Origin: a virus
IMG/VR virus record: IMGVR_UViG_3300031823_000003
Span: 1 to 64,000 of that record
DNA: 64,000 bases
Reading direction: 5' to 3' (one strand)
The notes beneath the pieces were generated by a model that saw nothing but the letters and a program-made list of their open reading frames with translations, searched no databases and was not told where the DNA came from. Below, piece after piece: positions 1 through 17,022 of the stretch. The position numbers and the translations under genes were made by a program. Every line of letters starts with the position of its first letter. Position 1 is the first letter of the stretch.

Positions 1-138
1 GAGCACAGGCACGAGCACAGGCACGAGCACAGGCACGAGCACAGGCACGAGCACAGGCACGAGCACAGGCACGAGCACAGGCACGAGCACAGGCACGAGC
101 ACAGGCACGAGCACAGGCACGAGCACAGGCACGAGCAC
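1..138. repeat. 12-bp tandem repeat, about 11.5 copies
   Basis: The unit GAGCACAGGCAC is repeated exactly, without a mismatch, from the window edge to base 138. Read in the frame of the downstream polymerase gene it encodes Ser-Thr-Gly-Thr over and over, and there is no stop codon between it and the polymerase. It therefore looks like a coding minisatellite giving a flexible N-terminal tail or linker. The true copy number is unknown, because the repeat reaches the window edge and short-read assemblies often break at such places. Confidence 0.95.
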
Positions 139-2767
139 ACGTCCGTCATTCCGCCGCTACGATCCATTTGCCAATCGGCCATTGCGACCAGTCCCTCCTG
201 TTGGTCCGGTTCCCGCCCGCGTCTATCTGATAGGTGAAAAACCGGGACGTGATGAAGCGCGGCGCGGCGTGCCCTTTGTCGGTAAGTCCGGGCAGATATT
301 GTCAGTATGCCTGTCTGCCGCCAACGTCGAACGCTCCGAATGCCGGATCAATAATCTGGTATCCACGTTTACTGAATATTCCAAACCGACCACCGAAGAG
401 ATCGCCCGCGACCATGATGCGCTGGCCGCTGACATTTTGATGTGTGATCCGGAAGTGATCGGGCTAGTCGGTGCATACGCCGTCGAGCATGTACTTGGCA
501 ACGGTCCCGCTGAGATGGAGCGTGTACACGGGATACCTCAGCATGTAGATGCGCTATTCGGCGGCGAACTGCCCCGCGACGGTGGATGGACGATCATTCC
601 TCTCCTGCATCCCGCCGGGGCTGTGCATGCTCCGGACTCCATGCCACTGATCCTTGATGATGTTCTGCAACTGGGCCGACTCCTCGATCACGAAATCGCG
701 GTGCGCGAACCTGATCCCTATGCCGGAAAAGAGGATTACCGCGACTACCCGTATACAGGCGGCACAGTCATCATCAACAAGCCTGCCGGATGCGACACCG
801 AAGGCAGCCGCGAGCACCCGTGGTGCATGACGGCGAGTACGCGACCGGGAACCGGGAGATTATTCAAGCCCGGATGGAGAGTCAGGTTCAAGGACAAAGT
901 TTACCTTTGGAACGCACTGCATGATTTAGGCGTATTGAGAGAGTTAGGAATTGAACTGGAAGACGGGCAGTATGTTGATCTGATGATCTATAGTTATTTG
1001 CTTTGTGTCGCCCCCCAAGGCTTGAAGCCATCGGCGTATAGAAATTGCGGCATGCACCAGGATGACTATGACGATATAGTCCGCGATGCCCGACTGGATA
1101 AAGCCATGAACTATCTGCTGGCGGCGGCGGACCAAGAGTGGCCGAAAGCCGAACCACAGGTAATCGCTGAACGTGGGACATATCGAGTGTATAAGCCTAG
1201 ATCGGTTAATTTCCGCATCAACAAGATACTCGATGACTGGACCAAGTGGCAGATAGGGGACCGCGAAGAGGAAGTGGATTTACGGAAGCGCTGGCGCGAG
1301 GTAGTAAGCAAGTCTCCGGAAGTAGCGGCACCCGTGATCACGGCAATGGGCGACATGCCGGACGCTACTCTGGATGACGTGCCGTATGCCAAGGCGCAGA
1401 GGTATGCGATCAGGGATAGCGATGCCACACTTCGCATGGCTCCAATATTAGAGCAAAAGATCAAGGATATGGGACTTGAGCAGATCGCCGAAATCGACCA
1501 TGCGATCCTGCCCATGCTGGATTCCATGCAGCAGAACGGGATCAGGCTGGCATACACGCCATTTTGGGACGATATCGAAGCTCAGTGCGAAGCGCAGATG
1601 TCTAGGGCCCAGTTTGAGATATTCAAACTAACTGGTGAAGATGTCAATCCGGCATCGGGGGACCAGGTTGCAGAATTACTTTACGGCAAACTGGGAATGA
1701 CGCCGCCAAAGTATACGGACAGTGGTGAACGCGGATCAGTGAATGCCGTATGCCTTGAATCCCTGTTAGGCCAGCATCCGGTCATCCAGCACATCATGGA
1801 TTTCACCGAAGCCAGCAAGATCAGAGGGACGTATGTGGAACCACTACGGTTACTCTGTACAGTTGGCGACCGTAGAGTGCGGTCCACGATACGATCGACT
1901 CGCACTACGACGGGCAGGCTGGCAATGGCTGATCCGCCGTTGCACCAGATTCCGATTATGACCGATCTGGGGAAGCAACTGCGTGACGGGTTTATTGCCG
2001 AGTCCGGGTGCGTGCTGTATGACATTGACGTTAACCAACTGGAAATGCGTATTATGGCGCACGACTCCCGCGATGAGGAACTGTGCTGGCTGTTCCATGA
2101 AAACCGCGACATTCACGCTGAAACTGCGTGCAGCATATTCTCGGTGCCGATGTCGGCGCTGAGCGTGGGAGCTAACGGTAAGATCAACGACTATCGGAGG
2201 ATTGTGGCCAAGCACGCGGCGTTCGGTATCATCAACGGTATCACCGAACACGGTCTGGTTAATTACATGATACTCAATCGATGTCGGCGACCGGATGGCG
2301 AACCTTGGACGGTGGATGATTGTGTAATCATGCGCGCGGAGTGGTTCAAGAAGTACAAGGGCGTAAAGAGGTTCCATGAGGAGTGTATGGAAGAGACGCG
2401 GCAGACAGGACTAGCGCGCGAGACTATTGGTGGCCGGATCATCTATCTGCCTCAGGTATGGAGTCCGGACAAGCGGGTCAGGGAAAGCGCGGAGAGAATG
2501 AGCTATGTCATGCATACACAGGGCGGCGGACAGTCGCTGATTAAGCGGTGCATGGCGGTGGTGTGGCGGGAAGTGTGCAAGGTGTATATAGAGGTAAAGT
2601 CGTTGTTGCAAATGCACGATGAATTGCTGTTTGAGTTGCCGGATGATGCAGGATTGAAGAAAGATGTTGATGAGACCTGTACCCGGATTATGTGTAATGC
2701 GGTCAAGTTGAGAGTTCCGGTGCTGGCCGATGGCGGGTTCGGGATGTCTTGGGGGACGGCGCACTGA
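2..2767 (+). CDS. UDG-like / 3'-5' exonuclease / family A DNA polymerase fusion (5' partial)
   Basis: This is the replicative DNA polymerase of the phage. The frame is open from base 2, so the gene begins left of the window. A TTG at 182 is the first start-like codon after the repeat, but nothing supports it. After the Ser-Thr-Gly-Thr tail comes a domain like family 4 uracil-DNA glycosylases, with GEKPG at 233, PFVGKSG just after, and LLHPAG around 602. Next is a DnaQ-like exonuclease with motif I DTE at 794-802, a motif II-like LWNALHD and a motif III-like YVDLMIY. The polymerase part shows TGRLA, motif A DVNQLEMR at 2027, motif B RRIVAKHAAFGIING and motif C HDE at 2615-2623. UDG-like domains fused to phage PolA are known. 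Whether this one removes uracil or only binds it cannot be told here. Confidence 0.93.
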   Translation, partial: STGTSTGTSTGTSTGTSTGTSTGTSTGTSTGTSTGTSTGTSTGTSTRPSFRRYDPFANRPLRPVPPVGPVPARVYLIGEKPGRDEARRGVPFVGKSGQILSVCLSAANVERSECRINNLVSTFTEYSKPTTEEIARDHDALAADILMCDPEVIGLVGAYAVEHVLGNGPAEMERVHGIPQHVDALFGGELPRDGGWTIIPLLHPAGAVHAPDSMPLILDDVLQLGRLLDHEIAVREPDPYAGKEDYRDYPYTGGTVIINKPAGCDTEGSREHPWCMTASTRPGTGRLFKPGWRVRFKDKVYLWNALHDLGVLRELGIELEDGQYVDLMIYSYLLCVAPQGLKPSAYRNCGMHQDDYDDIVRDARLDKAMNYLLAAADQEWPKAEPQVIAERGTYRVYKPRSVNFRINKILDDWTKWQIGDREEEVDLRKRWREVVSKSPEVAAPVITAMGDMPDATLDDVPYAKAQRYAIRDSDATLRMAPILEQKIKDMGLEQIAEIDHAILPMLDSMQQNGIRLAYTPFWDDIEAQCEAQMSRAQFEIFKLTGEDVNPASGDQVAELLYGKLGMTPPKYTDSGERGSVNAVCLESLLGQHPVIQHIMDFTEASKIRGTYVEPLRLLCTVGDRRVRSTIRSTRTTTGRLAMADPPLHQIPIMTDLGKQLRDGFIAESGCVLYDIDVNQLEMRIMAHDSRDEELCWLFHENRDIHAETACSIFSVPMSALSVGANGKINDYRRIVAKHAAFGIINGITEHGLVNYMILNRCRRPDGEPWTVDDCVIMRAEWFKKYKGVKRFHEECMEETRQTGLARETIGGRIIYLPQVWSPDKRVRESAERMSYVMHTQGGGQSLIKRCMAVVWREVCKVYIEVKSLLQMHDELLFELPDDAGLKKDVDETCTRIMCNAVKLRVPVLADGGFGMSWGTAH

Positions 2768-8298: not shown

Positions 8299-8384
8299 GC
8301 CATGCTTAGCCGTGTTCAGCTATGTATCCGCTCAGCTCAGCCATGTCATGCCGCGTTGCGCCGAGTCTTGCTGTGGTTTGTATC
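8299..8384 (+). repeat. pentamer tract A, 17 G-Y-N-N-N units
   Basis: Starting at 8299, a G recurs every 5 nt for 17 units, with one 6-nt unit at 8324. The second base is a pyrimidine in 16 of 17 units and the last three bases vary freely. The tract lies in the divergent gap between the minus-strand gene at 7902 and the HTH gene at 8470. It shares units such as GCCGT, GCTGT and GCCGA with tracts B and C. Confidence 0.9.
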
Positions 8385-8385
8385 A

Positions 8386-8432
8386 GGCCGGGAGACTCCA
8401 ATCTTCGATGGTCTTCCGGCCCGCTATTTTTT
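8386..8432 (+). terminator. hairpin and U-tract after tract A
   Basis: GGCCGGGAGAC (8386-8396) pairs with GTCTTCCGGCC (8411-8421) over 11 bp with one G-U, closing a 14-nt loop. After five bases a run of six T follows (8427-8432). This looks like an intrinsic terminator on the plus strand directly after tract A. The T-run also sits just before the -35 of the next promoter. Confidence 0.65.
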
Positions 8433-8434
8433 CC

Positions 8435-8463
8435 TTGACTGATTAACTTAATTAAGTTAATTT
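8435..8463 (+). promoter_or_regulatory. promoter with 20-bp palindromic operator
   Basis: TTGACT (8435-8440) is followed by the perfect palindrome ATTAACTTAATTAAGTTAAT (8442-8461). A weak -10 (TAATTT, 8458-8463) lies 17 bp after the -35 box. The palindrome fills the spacer, so a dimeric repressor bound here would block the promoter. The obvious candidate is the HTH protein encoded just downstream. The start codon is 6 nt after the -10, which suggests a leaderless transcript. Confidence 0.6.
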
Positions 8464-8469
8464 GTTCAT

Positions 8470-8685
8470 GTGAGCGGGCACAAGCATTATACGGAACAGC
8501 ACCTTCGTAGTCTTCTTAAAAAACACCTTCACTTTGGCGATATGCATCAATCCGCGCTGGCTCGGCGCATCGGTGTGTCTCCGGCGTTTTTATCAAAGGC
8601 GCTGGGAGGAGAGCCGTTGACGGGGAAGATTGTGAAATGGCTGGGGTACAGGAGAGTGAAGATCAGAGTTTTTGAAAAGTTGTGA
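8470..8685 (+). CDS. small HTH DNA-binding protein
   Basis: A 71-residue basic protein starting with GTG. The segment HQSALARRIGVSPAFLSKALGG is a Cro/CI-like helix-turn-helix, with LTGKIVKWLGYRRVKIRVFEKL following. This is the usual shape of short phage Cro-like proteins. There is no ribosome binding site, in line with a leaderless mRNA. Upstream lies a 20-bp palindrome, its likely own operator. The stop codon runs straight into pentamer tract B, and tract A lies upstream, so the gene is framed by the repeats. Confidence 0.75.
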   Translation: MSGHKHYTEQHLRSLLKKHLHFGDMHQSALARRIGVSPAFLSKALGGEPLTGKIVKWLGYRRVKIRVFEKL

Positions 8686-8688
8686 TCC

Positions 8689-8823
8689 GTTCCGCCAAGC
8701 CGTGCTGTGGTGTATTCAGTTGCGCTCTGCCTGGTCGAGCCGCGCTAGGTTACGTTGTGCCGGGTCAGGTTAAGTCGTGTTTTGTATCGTTCGGTTTAGT
8801 CGAGCCGAGCTACGTCTCGCTGT
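8689..8823 (+). repeat. pentamer tract B, 27 G-Y-N-N-N units
   Basis: 135 bp made of 27 consecutive 5-nt units without a single indel. The first base is G in 26 of 27 units (A at 8714) and the second is a pyrimidine in 26 of 27 (G at 8709). The last three bases vary. It fills the gap between the HTH stop and the RAMP-like gene. A 16-nt block at 8704-8719 matches one at 9664-9679 in tract C at 14 positions. No long frame runs through it. Confidence 0.93.
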
Positions 8824-8839
8824 CGTGCCAAATTTAAAG

Positions 8840-8845
8840 TAGAAT
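8840..8845 (+). promoter_or_regulatory. -10 element of the RAMP-like gene
   Basis: TAGAAT matches the -10 consensus at five of six positions. The ATG of the next gene begins 6 nt later, so the start site would be at or next to the start codon. No ribosome binding site is present. The region 17 bp upstream is the end of tract B and has no clear -35 box. Confidence 0.5.
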
Positions 8846-8851
8846 CACGCA

Positions 8852-9505
8852 ATGCCAAAAAGTGTACTCGAAAGCGGTAACAAAGACCATCTGTCCAATA
8901 CGAGCAACGGAGCGTCCAGTCAGATAGAAATGACCGAGCCTTATGTCGCGCATATCGACCTACAGGGCGTATGCCCGATCATTTTTCACCGCTGGAACGT
9001 GGAATCAGTCGAGGCCAAGTCCGCGTCAGCCAAAGGATCAAAAGCGAAAAATACGGACGACGTGGAATCGTTTGTCAGCCGCGACGACAAGGGAATCATC
9101 TGTGTTCCGGGAGAATATCTGCGGCAGGCCGTGCTGCATGCCGCCAAGTTCCGCCAAGACCCGAGATCGCCGCGCAAATCATTTTCGGACTTGGCGAAAG
9201 CTGGAATATTTTCTATCGACGAACTGGTGCCAATCACGAGTGCATCCGGCAAGCTAGCAAAGGAATGGGACTATCTGGATCGCCGCCGCATGACGGTACA
9301 GAGAAATTCGATTACCCGGTCGCGTCCGGCATTTCACGCGGGATGGCGGGCACAGTTTCACTTGCAGGTGGTGCTACCGGAATACATCAGCCCTTCGTTT
9401 TTGAATGACCTTATTCAACTCAGTGGGAAAGTTATCGGTTTAGCCGATTCCCGTCCTTCGTATGGGCGATTTCTTGTGGTAGGGTTCAAGACATCGGAAG
9501 TTTAA
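8852..9505 (+). CDS. RAMP-like protein between pentamer tracts
   Basis: A 217-residue protein of unknown function. After a polar N-terminus of about 30 residues comes a strand-loop element (YVAHIDLQGVCPIIFHRW). Then follow a Lys/Ala/Ser-rich loop, a segment CVPGEYLRQAVLHAAKF, a basic strand (RRRMTVQRNSITRSRP) and a closing element GLADSRPSYGRFLVVGF near residues 195-212. I have seen this general pattern, ending 'G.gD.RP.yGrF', in uncharacterised phage proteins. Its strand-helix layout and glycine-rich end loop recall RAMP/Cas7-type RNA-binding folds. That resemblance is by eye and is inference. Tracts B and C flank it directly, so an RNA- or DNA-binding role with 5-nt periodicity is the obvious idea. 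Confidence 0.7.
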   Translation: MPKSVLESGNKDHLSNTSNGASSQIEMTEPYVAHIDLQGVCPIIFHRWNVESVEAKSASAKGSKAKNTDDVESFVSRDDKGIICVPGEYLRQAVLHAAKFRQDPRSPRKSFSDLAKAGIFSIDELVPITSASGKLAKEWDYLDRRRMTVQRNSITRSRPAFHAGWRAQFHLQVVLPEYISPSFLNDLIQLSGKVIGLADSRPSYGRFLVVGFKTSEV

Positions 9506-9518
9506 ACAGGTGAGGCGA

Positions 9519-9728
9519 GCCGGGATTTGCCTTGCCGTGTTGAGTTCCGCCCGGATTCGTTCTGCTTCGCTAAGCTATGTTTAGTTGAGCATAGCCGAGA
9601 TACGCCGGGTTATGCTTGGCTCCGTTTCGATTGGCCTAGATTTACTTAGCTGAGTCGAGTTGTGCTGTGCTGTATTGAGTCCCGCTTTGACGGGCCGTGC
9701 TTGGCTGCGCCGAACTGCGTTGCGCTAT
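9519..9728 (+). repeat. pentamer tract C, 42 G-Y-N-N-N units
   Basis: 210 bp made of 42 units of exactly 5 nt with no indel. The first base is G in 39 units and A in 3. The second is C in 24, T in 12, A in 6 and never G. The remaining three bases vary. It starts 13 bases after the RAMP-like stop and ends across the stop codon of the convergent minus-strand gene, so it fills the whole convergent gap between the two transcription directions. Stop codons occur in all plus frames. Confidence 0.95.
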
Positions 9729-10213
9729 TGACCTGCGGCTCCAGTGGTGCTAACTGCTGGGGCCGTTTGTTCAGCGGGACGGACCGCTGACCAGTCTCCA
9801 AAACAGTAATTGGTGATTGCGTCCGCCGCTATTTTACGGACAAAACTATCAAACGGCTCCCCGGCGGATTCAGCCCAAGTTTGCATCGGCTCGCAGGCTT
9901 CCAAGGGGATTTCTATTTCGACCAGCAGACCGCCGCCCGGACCCTTGCGCGGCCCGGTAGATATACCCTGCGATGCGGCCAATTTTCGGACTTTGGCGAG
10001 CTGGTCCGGGGATAGTCCGGAGATGAACGCGCTGAGATCGGCGGACACAGTAGGATCAGTCTTGGCGATTGAAGCGCCTGATGCCGCTGCCTGCTGACCT
10101 GTGCTCGGCGGATCGGCGAGTGGATTAGTATCTGGTCTGTCGCCCGGTACTATATTCGCAGGCGTACCTGTGCCCGTGCTCGCGCTTGTGTTCGTGCTCG
10201 TGTCCGTACTCAT
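9725..10213 (-). CDS. hypothetical protein with Ser/Thr-rich N-terminus
   Basis: A 162-residue protein starting MSTDTSTNTSASTGTGTP, chosen because AGAGGTG lies just upstream. The N-terminal 20 residues resemble the Ser-Thr-Gly-Thr repeat at the left window edge, and the underlying DNA (GAGCAC/GGGCAC units) is related. Residues 60-95 are helical (LSAFISGLSPDQLAKVRKLAASQGIS). The C-terminal part (LLVEIEIPLEACEPMQTWAESAGEPFDSFVRKIAADAI) looks like a ribbon-helix-helix variant, so a DNA-binding role is possible. It is the last late gene. Confidence 0.65.
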   Translation of the reverse strand: MSTDTSTNTSASTGTGTPANIVPGDRPDTNPLADPPSTGQQAAASGASIAKTDPTVSADLSAFISGLSPDQLAKVRKLAASQGISTGPRKGPGGGLLVEIEIPLEACEPMQTWAESAGEPFDSFVRKIAADAITNYCFGDWSAVRPAEQTAPAVSTTGAAGQ

Positions 10214-10251
10214 AGTCTCACCTCTTCGTAGCTGCGCTCTGAATTGGCGTT

Positions 10252-10740
10252 TCAAATCAGTCCTACTTCCTGCCACACGGCTTGTATGCCGCCGTCCATA
10301 AACAATTGCCGCAGATTGTCGTCTGGCTCGCCTTCCGGCCAAGGCCCGGTGAGCTGAAAATGCGGCGCGTCCGGAAAGGTCCGCCACAATACACCTGAAT
10401 CCAGTCCCAGACTGATACCCTTGGCCTCCATACTTTTCCATACCGGGTGGGATGAATTCCAGTCAGGGAAGTATGGCTTATCGGGTGCGAACTGGGATGG
10501 CACACAATCAACGGCCAAGCCGTAATTGTGATAACTGTATCCGCCTTGAACGTTGGTGACAATGTTACCCGGAGCGGTTCTGCCTTGAGTGTACAGCGTG
10601 TCCTGCTCTGCCCATGTCCGCATACCCTGTACGACGCGGATATACACGTTATCCTGCTCCAGCATGGCGGCGAGAGTGTGAGTTTTAGCGGCTAGTGCCG
10701 GACATACCTGTCGCAATCGGGCTTCGGAGACGGCATCCAT
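10252..10740 (-). CDS. endolysin, M15 family L,D-/D,D-peptidase
   Basis: A 162-residue peptidoglycan peptidase that cuts stem peptides at the end of infection. The zinc site of M15 (VanY/CwlK) enzymes is complete: SYHNYGLAVD gives the SxHxxGxAxD motif and DAPHFQ gives the last histidine. The N-terminal part (VRVVQGMRTWAEQDTLY) matches the family too. There is no signal peptide or cell-wall binding domain, so a holin is needed for release. It is the distal gene of the lysis cluster 10.2-13.2 kb. Confidence 0.9.
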   Translation of the reverse strand: MDAVSEARLRQVCPALAAKTHTLAAMLEQDNVYIRVVQGMRTWAEQDTLYTQGRTAPGNIVTNVQGGYSYHNYGLAVDCVPSQFAPDKPYFPDWNSSHPVWKSMEAKGISLGLDSGVLWRTFPDAPHFQLTGPWPEGEPDDNLRQLFMDGGIQAVWQEVGLI

Positions 10741-15411: not shown

Positions 15412-17022
15412 TCATTTGTGGAATCCATAGCAAGTGACGCTGGTGAATCCGCCAGAATTAGTTGTTCCACGGTTGTCTATATTGACGGTTACGGCGGCAG
15501 CTGTTTGGGTACCGCTGTTCGGATAGAGAAACGCCGGCTGTGGGTTGCCTGTCACAGGACTAATTCCAGAACACACCACGTAATAAACGTTGTCCACAAA
15601 CGGGGAGTCCCATGTCACGGTGACTGTGCATGGCGTTCCGAGACTGGACGTACATCCGGCGACATTTTGCACCTGTTGTGTTCCCGATCCCGCGCTCGCC
15701 GTACACCATGAATTCGTACCGTCGGCATGACACTCGGTTGTCGAATTACCTGTAAGCGAGAACGCTGGCTTACCGTTAACGTTTCCGCTGTCCCCGGCAA
15801 TAGTCAGGATATTTGCAGTGTTATCAGTGCGCGTGATCGACCAGTATGCGCCAAGCACACTATGCGGGAGAGTGATCGTGAATGACCCTCCGGCGGCGGT
15901 CGCGTGAATGATGCAGTCGTTGGAGGCGACGGTGTACGTAGTAGTGACCGTGCTATTGATTGGACAGTGCCAGCCGATGAGATTGACAGTATTAGACCCC
16001 CCGCCTATGACTCCGGCGGTGAAGGCGTTTACGTTCGTCCATACATTCGACCCGTTGAGCAGTGGAATCTGGGAAGCAGGTAGAGTAGTGGCCGCAATAT
16101 CGGAATTGGCATTGGACTGCAACAGTATGCCGTTTGACCATGATCCGGTGGCGGTGGCCAGTTTGGTCCCGGCGGACCCCTGGAATCCGGTGGCGAACTG
16201 CGAGCCGTTGAGGCTGAAACTGGGCGCGGACAGGCTGCCGCTGAGAGTAGTAACACCTATAACAGAGAGTGACGTGCCGACTGAGAGTGATGACGCTAGT
16301 GTAGCCGCCCCTGTGATACCGAGAGTGCCTGTGGCTGACAGATTGCCCGTGATGGCGACGTTGCCGTTAAAGTTGGTCCCGTTCAGAGTGCCGGGGATCA
16401 TGTTGGCGACGAGATTACAGAATGCCGGAGTAGTGGATGACCCGGTACAGTTGGCGAATACGTTGTATGGGCCTTGGCTGCCGAAGTCGATCCCGTTGGA
16501 TTGGCGGAACATGGGGAGGCCGGGACCACCGAGCGGGGAGCCGAATACCAGACCGGGGGACTGGGATGCAAAGGTGACGTTGATGAGGCATGCAGTCGAG
16601 CACGACGAACTGGATACGTTGAACACCGTGCTCGGCATGTTCAGGGTGACGGAAGTGACGGTGCCAGCGACAGCCTCCATGAGGTATGAGTAAATTACGC
16701 CGTTGATCGGAGTGACTTGGACGATTACAGGGCCGGGAGTCACCCATAGCGACGTGTTTCCGTATTGGTCTGTAGTGGCTGGATTACCCGTTGATATTGT
16801 CAGCGCCGGATCAAGAAATAGTGACGACAGGGGAGAGCATGGCGTGCCGCTGCCTGTAACCGGGCATACGCGGACAGATGCAAACGCCGCTGGACCTCCG
16901 GTCCCGGTGGGTGGCGCTGGCTGAATGACTTGTAAACTGATCGATCCGCCTTGAGCGTGCGTAAAAACGGGAGCGCCCCAGATCAATGCGATCAGGATAA
17001 GGAGATGAGCTCTTAATCGCAT
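15412..17022 (-). CDS. secreted fibre-like protein
   Basis: A 536-residue protein starting MRLRAHLLILIALIWGAPVF, a clean Sec signal. The start is fixed by GGGAGG just before the ATG; the open frame reaches further up without support. The body is rich in Ser, Thr, Gly and Asn with repeating GNLSATGTLGITGAATLASS-type units, a fibre-like repeat. The end has cysteine pairs. I read it as a host-facing adhesin or tail-fibre-like protein that can be exported through Sec. Confidence 0.7.
   Translation of the reverse strand: MRLRAHLLILIALIWGAPVFTHAQGGSISLQVIQPAPPTGTGGPAAFASVRVCPVTGSGTPCSPLSSLFLDPALTISTGNPATTDQYGNTSLWVTPGPVIVQVTPINGVIYSYLMEAVAGTVTSVTLNMPSTVFNVSSSSCSTACLINVTFASQSPGLVFGSPLGGPGLPMFRQSNGIDFGSQGPYNVFANCTGSSTTPAFCNLVANMIPGTLNGTNFNGNVAITGNLSATGTLGITGAATLASSLSVGTSLSVIGVTTLSGSLSAPSFSLNGSQFATGFQGSAGTKLATATGSWSNGILLQSNANSDIAATTLPASQIPLLNGSNVWTNVNAFTAGVIGGGSNTVNLIGWHCPINSTVTTTYTVASNDCIIHATAAGGSFTITLPHSVLGAYWSITRTDNTANILTIAGDSGNVNGKPAFSLTGNSTTECHADGTNSWCTASAGSGTQQVQNVAGCTSSLGTPCTVTVTWDSPFVDNVYYVVCSGISPVTGNPQPAFLYPNSGTQTAAAVTVNIDNRGTTNSGGFTSVTCYGFHK

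What the first reader, a model, noticed from the sequence alone, without database searches (positions are those of the whole stretch)
8299..9728. Three G-Y-N-N-N pentamer tracts framing an HTH gene and a RAMP-like gene
Tracts A (17 units), B (27) and C (42) show a G every 5 nt in 82 of 86 units and a pyrimidine after it in 78 of 86. Tracts B and C contain no indel over 135 and 210 bp. All three share one strand and fill the gaps around two genes. The three other bases vary freely, so this is not a simple tandem repeat. Selection must act on the spacing and on the G-Y step. It resembles no CRISPR, iteron, STRR or retron element I know. A protein that reads RNA or single-stranded DNA in 5-nt steps is the simplest idea; a 5-bp DNA phasing code is another.
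Basis: partly seen in the sequence, partly recalled or inferred. Interest (0 to 1): 0.95.

Follow-up and report, generated by a model that had tools for sequence, protein, structure and literature searches.

The report
Phage VIPR guide-RNA locus, variant repeat
The odd five-letter tracts are guide-RNA genes of a recently described phage weapon called VIPR, in which a small CRISPR-like protein carries RNAs that recognise DNA two letters at a time, and this phage uses an altered version of the fixed part of the repeat (GYY instead of GGY).

Summary
All 80 IMG/VR homologues and 34 of 36 genomic ones carry period-5 tracts next to the gene, on its strand; control stretches have none. Conversely, 80 of 120 loci found by the DNA pattern alone encode a Vipr. 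This is a VIPR system (PMC13142463, 2026): vrRNAs of GGY/NN repeats guide Vipr to dsDNA, NN pairing with a 1-nt skip. I re-derived that rule, mainly from one guide in the same clade. New here: the scaffold is GYY/NN. The other 57 aligned Viprs keep G at position 2 in 41-100% of units, the window in 4%; a phage with a related DNA polymerase also carries a GYYNN tract. Other VIPRs use GAC, GTC, GYC, GTT, GCA, AGC and CGC triplets. No target of the window's own guides was found. Known kind, new scaffold variant.

The parts
8299..8384 (+). Tract A: 17 GYYNN units (8299-8328, then one extra base, then 8330-8384); probable vrRNA guide region
8386..8421 (+). Hairpin directly after tract A, followed by a T run at 8427-8432; probable 3' tail/terminator of the vrRNA
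   Evidence: RNA fold -22.2 kcal/mol, z -3.64; the simple terminator scan did not list it
8470..8685 (+). 71-aa helix-turn-helix protein between tracts A and B; possible accessory (vap-like) or ordinary phage regulator
   Evidence: Weak HTH_26/HTH_3 and PHROG 296/1468 matches; no relative near vipr in the other loci compared
8689..8823 (+). Tract B: 27 GYYNN units, in the leader of the vipr gene
8852..9505 (+). vipr gene, 217-aa single-domain RAMP protein (phrog_4652)
   Evidence: PHROG 4652 E 5.9e-12; profile match to PDB 36pp SUSP1 Vipr E 2.8e-23, single sequence E 0.0031; AF2 pLDDT 88.2 and Foldseek hits to Cas7/Csm3
9519..9728 (+). Tract C: 42 GYYNN units downstream of vipr
9735..9766 (+). 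14-bp hairpin directly after tract C; probable tail/terminator, next to the end of the convergent gene 9725-10441
   Evidence: RNA fold of 9722-9785 -32.1 kcal/mol, z -3.87

Best explanation
The locus is a phage VIPR system with a variant repeat. The 217-aa protein is a Vipr RAMP; tracts A, B and C are the repeat regions of its guide RNAs (vrRNAs), read from the + strand. By the published mechanism, Vipr binds the repeat RNA; I take it that one subunit covers each 5-nt unit, holds the fixed triplet (here GYY instead of GGY) and exposes the two variable bases. The NN pairs together recognise double-stranded DNA in which every third base is skipped; bound DNA is silenced. The likely targets are competing phages or prophages. 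Shown here: the tracts, the protein family and fold, the tract-gene-strand linkage, the GYY scaffold, and the 1-nt skip in a guide of the same clade. Inferred: transcription, RNA binding, use of positions 4-5 as the code in the GYY version, the targets and the biological role.
For: Protein: profile match to SUSP1 Vipr and Cas7-type fold neighbours. Linkage: 80/80 viral and 34/36 genomic homologues have tracts on the gene strand within 700 nt; 0/80 randomised flanks, 0/80 control stretches 2.3-3 kb away. Reverse test: of 120 loci found only by (GGYNN)x8, 80 encode a Vipr, all 80 within 1.5 kb of a tract, 78 on the same strand. Code: across about 1.8 Mb only skip 1 with positions 4-5 is clearly enriched over shuffled guides (score >=17: 32 against 1.7). 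A guide in L080 matches the antisense of the DFRPTYGRF codons of other phages' vipr genes, with ten consecutive perfect units in L012; over all vipr loci the median best score is 22/28 at skip 1 and 14-15 at skip 0, 2 and 3. Variant: position 2 is G in 4% of window units and 41-100% in 57 others; L357, whose DNA polymerase is 79% identical to the window's, has a clean GYYNN tract. Mechanism: PMC13142463.
Against: No target was found for the window's guides: 8-unit patterns from tracts B and C gave only chance matches in IMG/VR, nothing exceeded chance in the held loci, and a 7-unit pattern from the L357 guide gave only chance matches. The skip-1 enrichment rests mostly on one guide (L080) that fits a motif conserved in many vipr genes. 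The window tracts are longer (27 and 42 unbroken units) than the published 9-16 units and lack an obvious shared 3' tail. No recognised accessory gene. The L357 record has a GYY tract but no Vipr in its 40 kb.
Confidence: 0.9

Rival explanations
1. A VIPR system gone out of use: the GYY tracts are a decayed GGY array whose second G is no longer selected.
For: Position 2 is looser in several relatives (41-70% G); tract A has a 1-nt slip; no target was found.
Against: Position 2 is not random but about 90% pyrimidine, while positions 1 and 3 stay at about 95%; B and C keep phase over 135 and 210 bp; the vipr frame is intact; L357 has 14 GYY units in a row.
Confidence: 0.1
2. The tracts act only as RNA binding sites for autoregulation or RNP assembly, in the manner of TRAP (11 subunits on triplets about 5 nt apart), with no guide function.
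For: Fixed triplet plus two free bases every 5 nt resembles the TRAP binding pattern (own knowledge); tract B lies in the vipr leader.
Against: Published VIPR assays show programmable DNA recognition by such RNAs (PMC13142463); the L080 guide fits vipr genes only under the skip-1 code; the fold neighbours are Cas7-like.
Confidence: 0.05
3. A decayed pentanucleotide microsatellite or a 5-bp DNA phasing element.
For: Head-to-tail 5-bp units.
Against: Column 5 is flat and column 4 nearly so, while three columns are fixed; strand and gene linkage in 80/80 loci; nearly absent on the opposite strand of the flanks (4/80).
Confidence: 0.02

Closest known systems
VIPR (Viral Interference Programmable Repeat) systems, SUSP1 / P. 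fulva type II (PMC13142463, bioRxiv 2026.04.26.720920)
   Same: Single small RAMP protein on a phage; intergenic tracts of 5-nt repeats next to it on the same strand; fixed triplet plus variable NN; sequence homology to SUSP1 Vipr
   Different: Triplet GYY instead of GGY; 27- and 42-unit unbroken tracts instead of 9-16 unit vrRNAs with a shared tail; no recognised vap; only weak single-sequence similarity to SUSP1 Vipr (E 0.003). The preprint mentions 'a related consensus' (fig. S17), which could not be read here, so GYY may already be listed
Class 1 CRISPR effectors (Cas7/Csm3, type VII Cas7, Cas7-11)
   Same: Cas7-type RAMP fold (Foldseek E from 1.2e-6; TM-score up to 0.54 among the hits listed)
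   Different: No repeat-spacer array seen; 5-nt steps instead of the 6-nt Cas7 step; a single small protein
TRAP binding sites (Bacillus trp leader)
   Same: Triplets about 5 nt apart read by a protein oligomer (own knowledge)
   Different: Unrelated fold; fixed short site; no guide role (own knowledge)

Membership tests
VIPR | Vipr RAMP protein | tested here: met
   Profile match to PDB 36pp SUSP1 Vipr E 2.8e-23; single sequence E 0.0031; Cas7-like fold
VIPR | Intergenic tracts next to vipr, same strand, 5-nt period | tested here: met
   Window; homologues 80/80 and 34/36
VIPR | Repeat is GGY/NN or a related consensus | tested here: met
   Met only in the wider sense: G1, Y3 and variable NN kept, but position 2 is Y, so strict GGY is not met
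VIPR | Tract transcribed as vrRNA and bound by Vipr | not testable with these tools
   Needs small-RNA sequencing or pull-down
VIPR | Conserved 3' tail after the repeats | tested here: inconclusive
   Strong hairpins follow tracts A and C but share no evident sequence; none after B
VIPR | NN code with 1-nt skip on dsDNA | tested here: inconclusive
   Seen for a clade member's guide (L080); no target found for the window's guides
VIPR | Accessory vap gene | tested here: inconclusive
   A 71-aa HTH gene lies between A and B; no relative of it was found near vipr in the other loci
VIPR | Carried by a virus or provirus | tested here: met
   Window lies in an 86,324-base IMG/VR virus record, with endolysin and phage DNA polymerase
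CRISPR-Cas class 1 | Array of identical repeats and unique spacers | tested here: not met
   No such array among the tandem repeats found in the window; no dedicated CRISPR detector was run
CRISPR-Cas class 1 | Several cas genes including an adaptation module | not tested
   The window proteins scanned, mostly next to the tracts, included no cas match; the whole record was not annotated

The most novel reading that the evidence does not exclude
VIPR systems have recoded the fixed triplet of their guide RNAs. In this phage lineage Vipr reads GYY instead of GGY, with M147 (shared only with the GYC system L221 and one distant Vipr) and other otherwise near-invariant residues changed, so that its guides and those of competing phages are not interchangeable.
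Probability: 0.35. Interest if true: 0.75.

Novelty: new variant of a known kind. Interest (0 to 1): 0.55.

Why it matters
VIPR is a newly described, possibly pre-CRISPR form of RNA-guided DNA recognition. A natural system with another fixed triplet suggests that the scaffold can change, and points to residues that may read it. That bears on how Vipr recognises its RNA, on whether competing phages use non-interchangeable scaffolds, and on engineering orthogonal Vipr tools. The survey here (GGY, GAC, GTC, GYC, GYY, GTT, GCA, AGC, CGC) suggests that the middle base is the most evolvable.

Tried and rejected
Rfam: nothing. Pfam: no family for the 217-aa protein. DNA search of INPHARED: nothing. 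Reading the tracts on the minus strand as RRC-NN: less likely by 5.2 nats from the NN composition of homologues. Decoding NN as the first two codon letters: the composition fits no coding frame better than uniform, and tblastn of the decoded peptides found nothing. Target scans for tracts B and C and for the L357 guide: chance matches only. A shared accessory gene: no cluster includes a window neighbour. A tree of Vipr proteins was started but its display failed and it was not used.

Full report
Observation. A profile for the unit scores 112.6, 83.3 and 30.0 for tracts C, B and A; the best of 40 Markov-1 randomisations of the 64 kb is 19.2. The column table shows a third fixed position: G, Y, Y, then a G/T-biased base, then a flat one. 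The unit is G-Y-Y-N-N.

Gene. The product of 8852-9505 matches phrog_4652 (unknown function) and no Pfam family. A profile of 58 homologues matches PDB 36pp chain D, 'SUSP1 Vipr protein', with E 2.8e-23; the single window sequence matches it with E 0.0031. An AlphaFold2 model (pLDDT 88.2, pTM 0.79) has Cas7-family RAMPs as its best PDB matches: type VII Cas7, Csm3, Cmr, gRAMP.

Linkage. The first three relatives found, in phages DSL-LC04 and Medea1 and in an IMG/VR contig, already had period-5 tracts beside the gene or its partner. Of 80 IMG/VR homologues all have a tract on the gene strand within 700 nt; 4 also have one on the opposite strand; randomised flanks and stretches 2.3-3 kb away have none. 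Of 36 homologues in GTDB genomes 34 have one, and the two others lie at contig ends. In the other direction, (GGYNN)x8 was scanned without reference to any protein: it stopped at 120 loci, 80 of which encode a Vipr at E <= 1e-3, all within 1.5 kb of a tract and 78 on its strand.

What is known. A full-text search led to PMC13142463: VIPR systems, a phage RAMP protein with vrRNAs of 9-16 YNNGG repeats, in which NN pairs with dsDNA with a 1-nt skip, used for repression of competing phages. A second search found no other paper on it. The locus fits this anatomy.

Independent check of the code. With 635 tracts held at that point, targets were sought in about 1.8 Mb of fetched sequence with the tracts masked, at skips 0-3 and five code offsets. 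Only skip 1 with the NN bases exceeds shuffled guides clearly (score >=17: 32 against 1.7). Most of this is one guide in L080 that fits the antisense of the conserved DFRPTYGRF codons of vipr in other phages; a guide in L205 has two further good matches, which by their position lie in vipr genes. For the L080 guide the median best score over vipr loci is 22/28 at skip 1 and 14-15 at the other skips; its own vipr scores 19, the best others 24; by my reading of the codons the skipped base is the wobble base. This agrees with the published rule, in the clade to which the window belongs, but rests on few independent guides.

The variant. In the 57 aligned homologues position 2 is G in 41-100% of units; in the window in 4%. 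Unsupervised fitting over 206 Vipr loci gives GGY or GGC for most, and GAC, GTC, GYC (L221), GTT, GCA, AGC and CGC for some. A relative of the window's phage, L357 (DNA polymerase 79% identical), was found without any tract query and carries a clean GYYNN tract at about 15727-15796, 14 units in a row, though its 40-kb record holds no Vipr. The window Vipr differs from its aligned relatives at near-invariant K67 (N), Y/W76 (S), A111 (F) and V147 (M). In the wider set of about 200 Viprs, M147 recurs only in L221, which has a GYC scaffold, and in one distant Vipr. This is a correlation with n = 2.

Architecture. Tract A is followed by a 36-nt hairpin and a T run, tract C by a 14-bp hairpin, which could be tails or terminators; tract B leads into vipr without one. 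No gene cluster shared by several loci includes a neighbour of the window's vipr.

Limits. No target of the window's guides was found. Transcription and binding cannot be tested here. Fig. S17 of the preprint, which shows the related consensuses, could not be read, so GYY may already be listed there. The 80 viral homologues were the best of 147 and include near-identical contigs.

Noticed in passing
L357:12025-12989 and L358:5812-6776: The DNA polymerase gene of both relatives carries a roughly 950-bp in-frame insertion that the window lacks; it begins with Cys and ends in ...VLN before Cys, like an intein. No Pfam match.
   Followed up: partly
window 182-2767: Family A DNA polymerase with an N-terminal uracil-DNA glycosylase superfamily domain in one reading frame.
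   Followed up: no
window 1-139 and L003 end: The virus record begins in a perfect 12-bp tandem repeat (GAGCACAGGCAC) and ends in another short repeat (GGTTACGGTTCC-like), so the assembly probably breaks at repeats.
   Followed up: partly
L080:4603-4677: A vrRNA-like guide whose NN code fits the conserved 3' end of vipr genes of many other phages: one VIPR apparently aimed at others.
   Followed up: yes
L217, L249, L262, L265, L275, L301 (GAC); L212, L248 (GTC); L286 (GTT); L288 (GCA); L289 (AGC); L306 (CGC): VIPR loci whose fixed triplet is not GGY, by unsupervised fitting.
   Followed up: partly
L022:3444-3938; L155:8059-8933; L107:6301-7010: Very long nearly unbroken tracts (about 99 to 175 units), far longer than a 9-16 unit vrRNA.
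   Followed up: no
L205:784-3386: Tracts on both strands in one VIPR locus.
   Followed up: no
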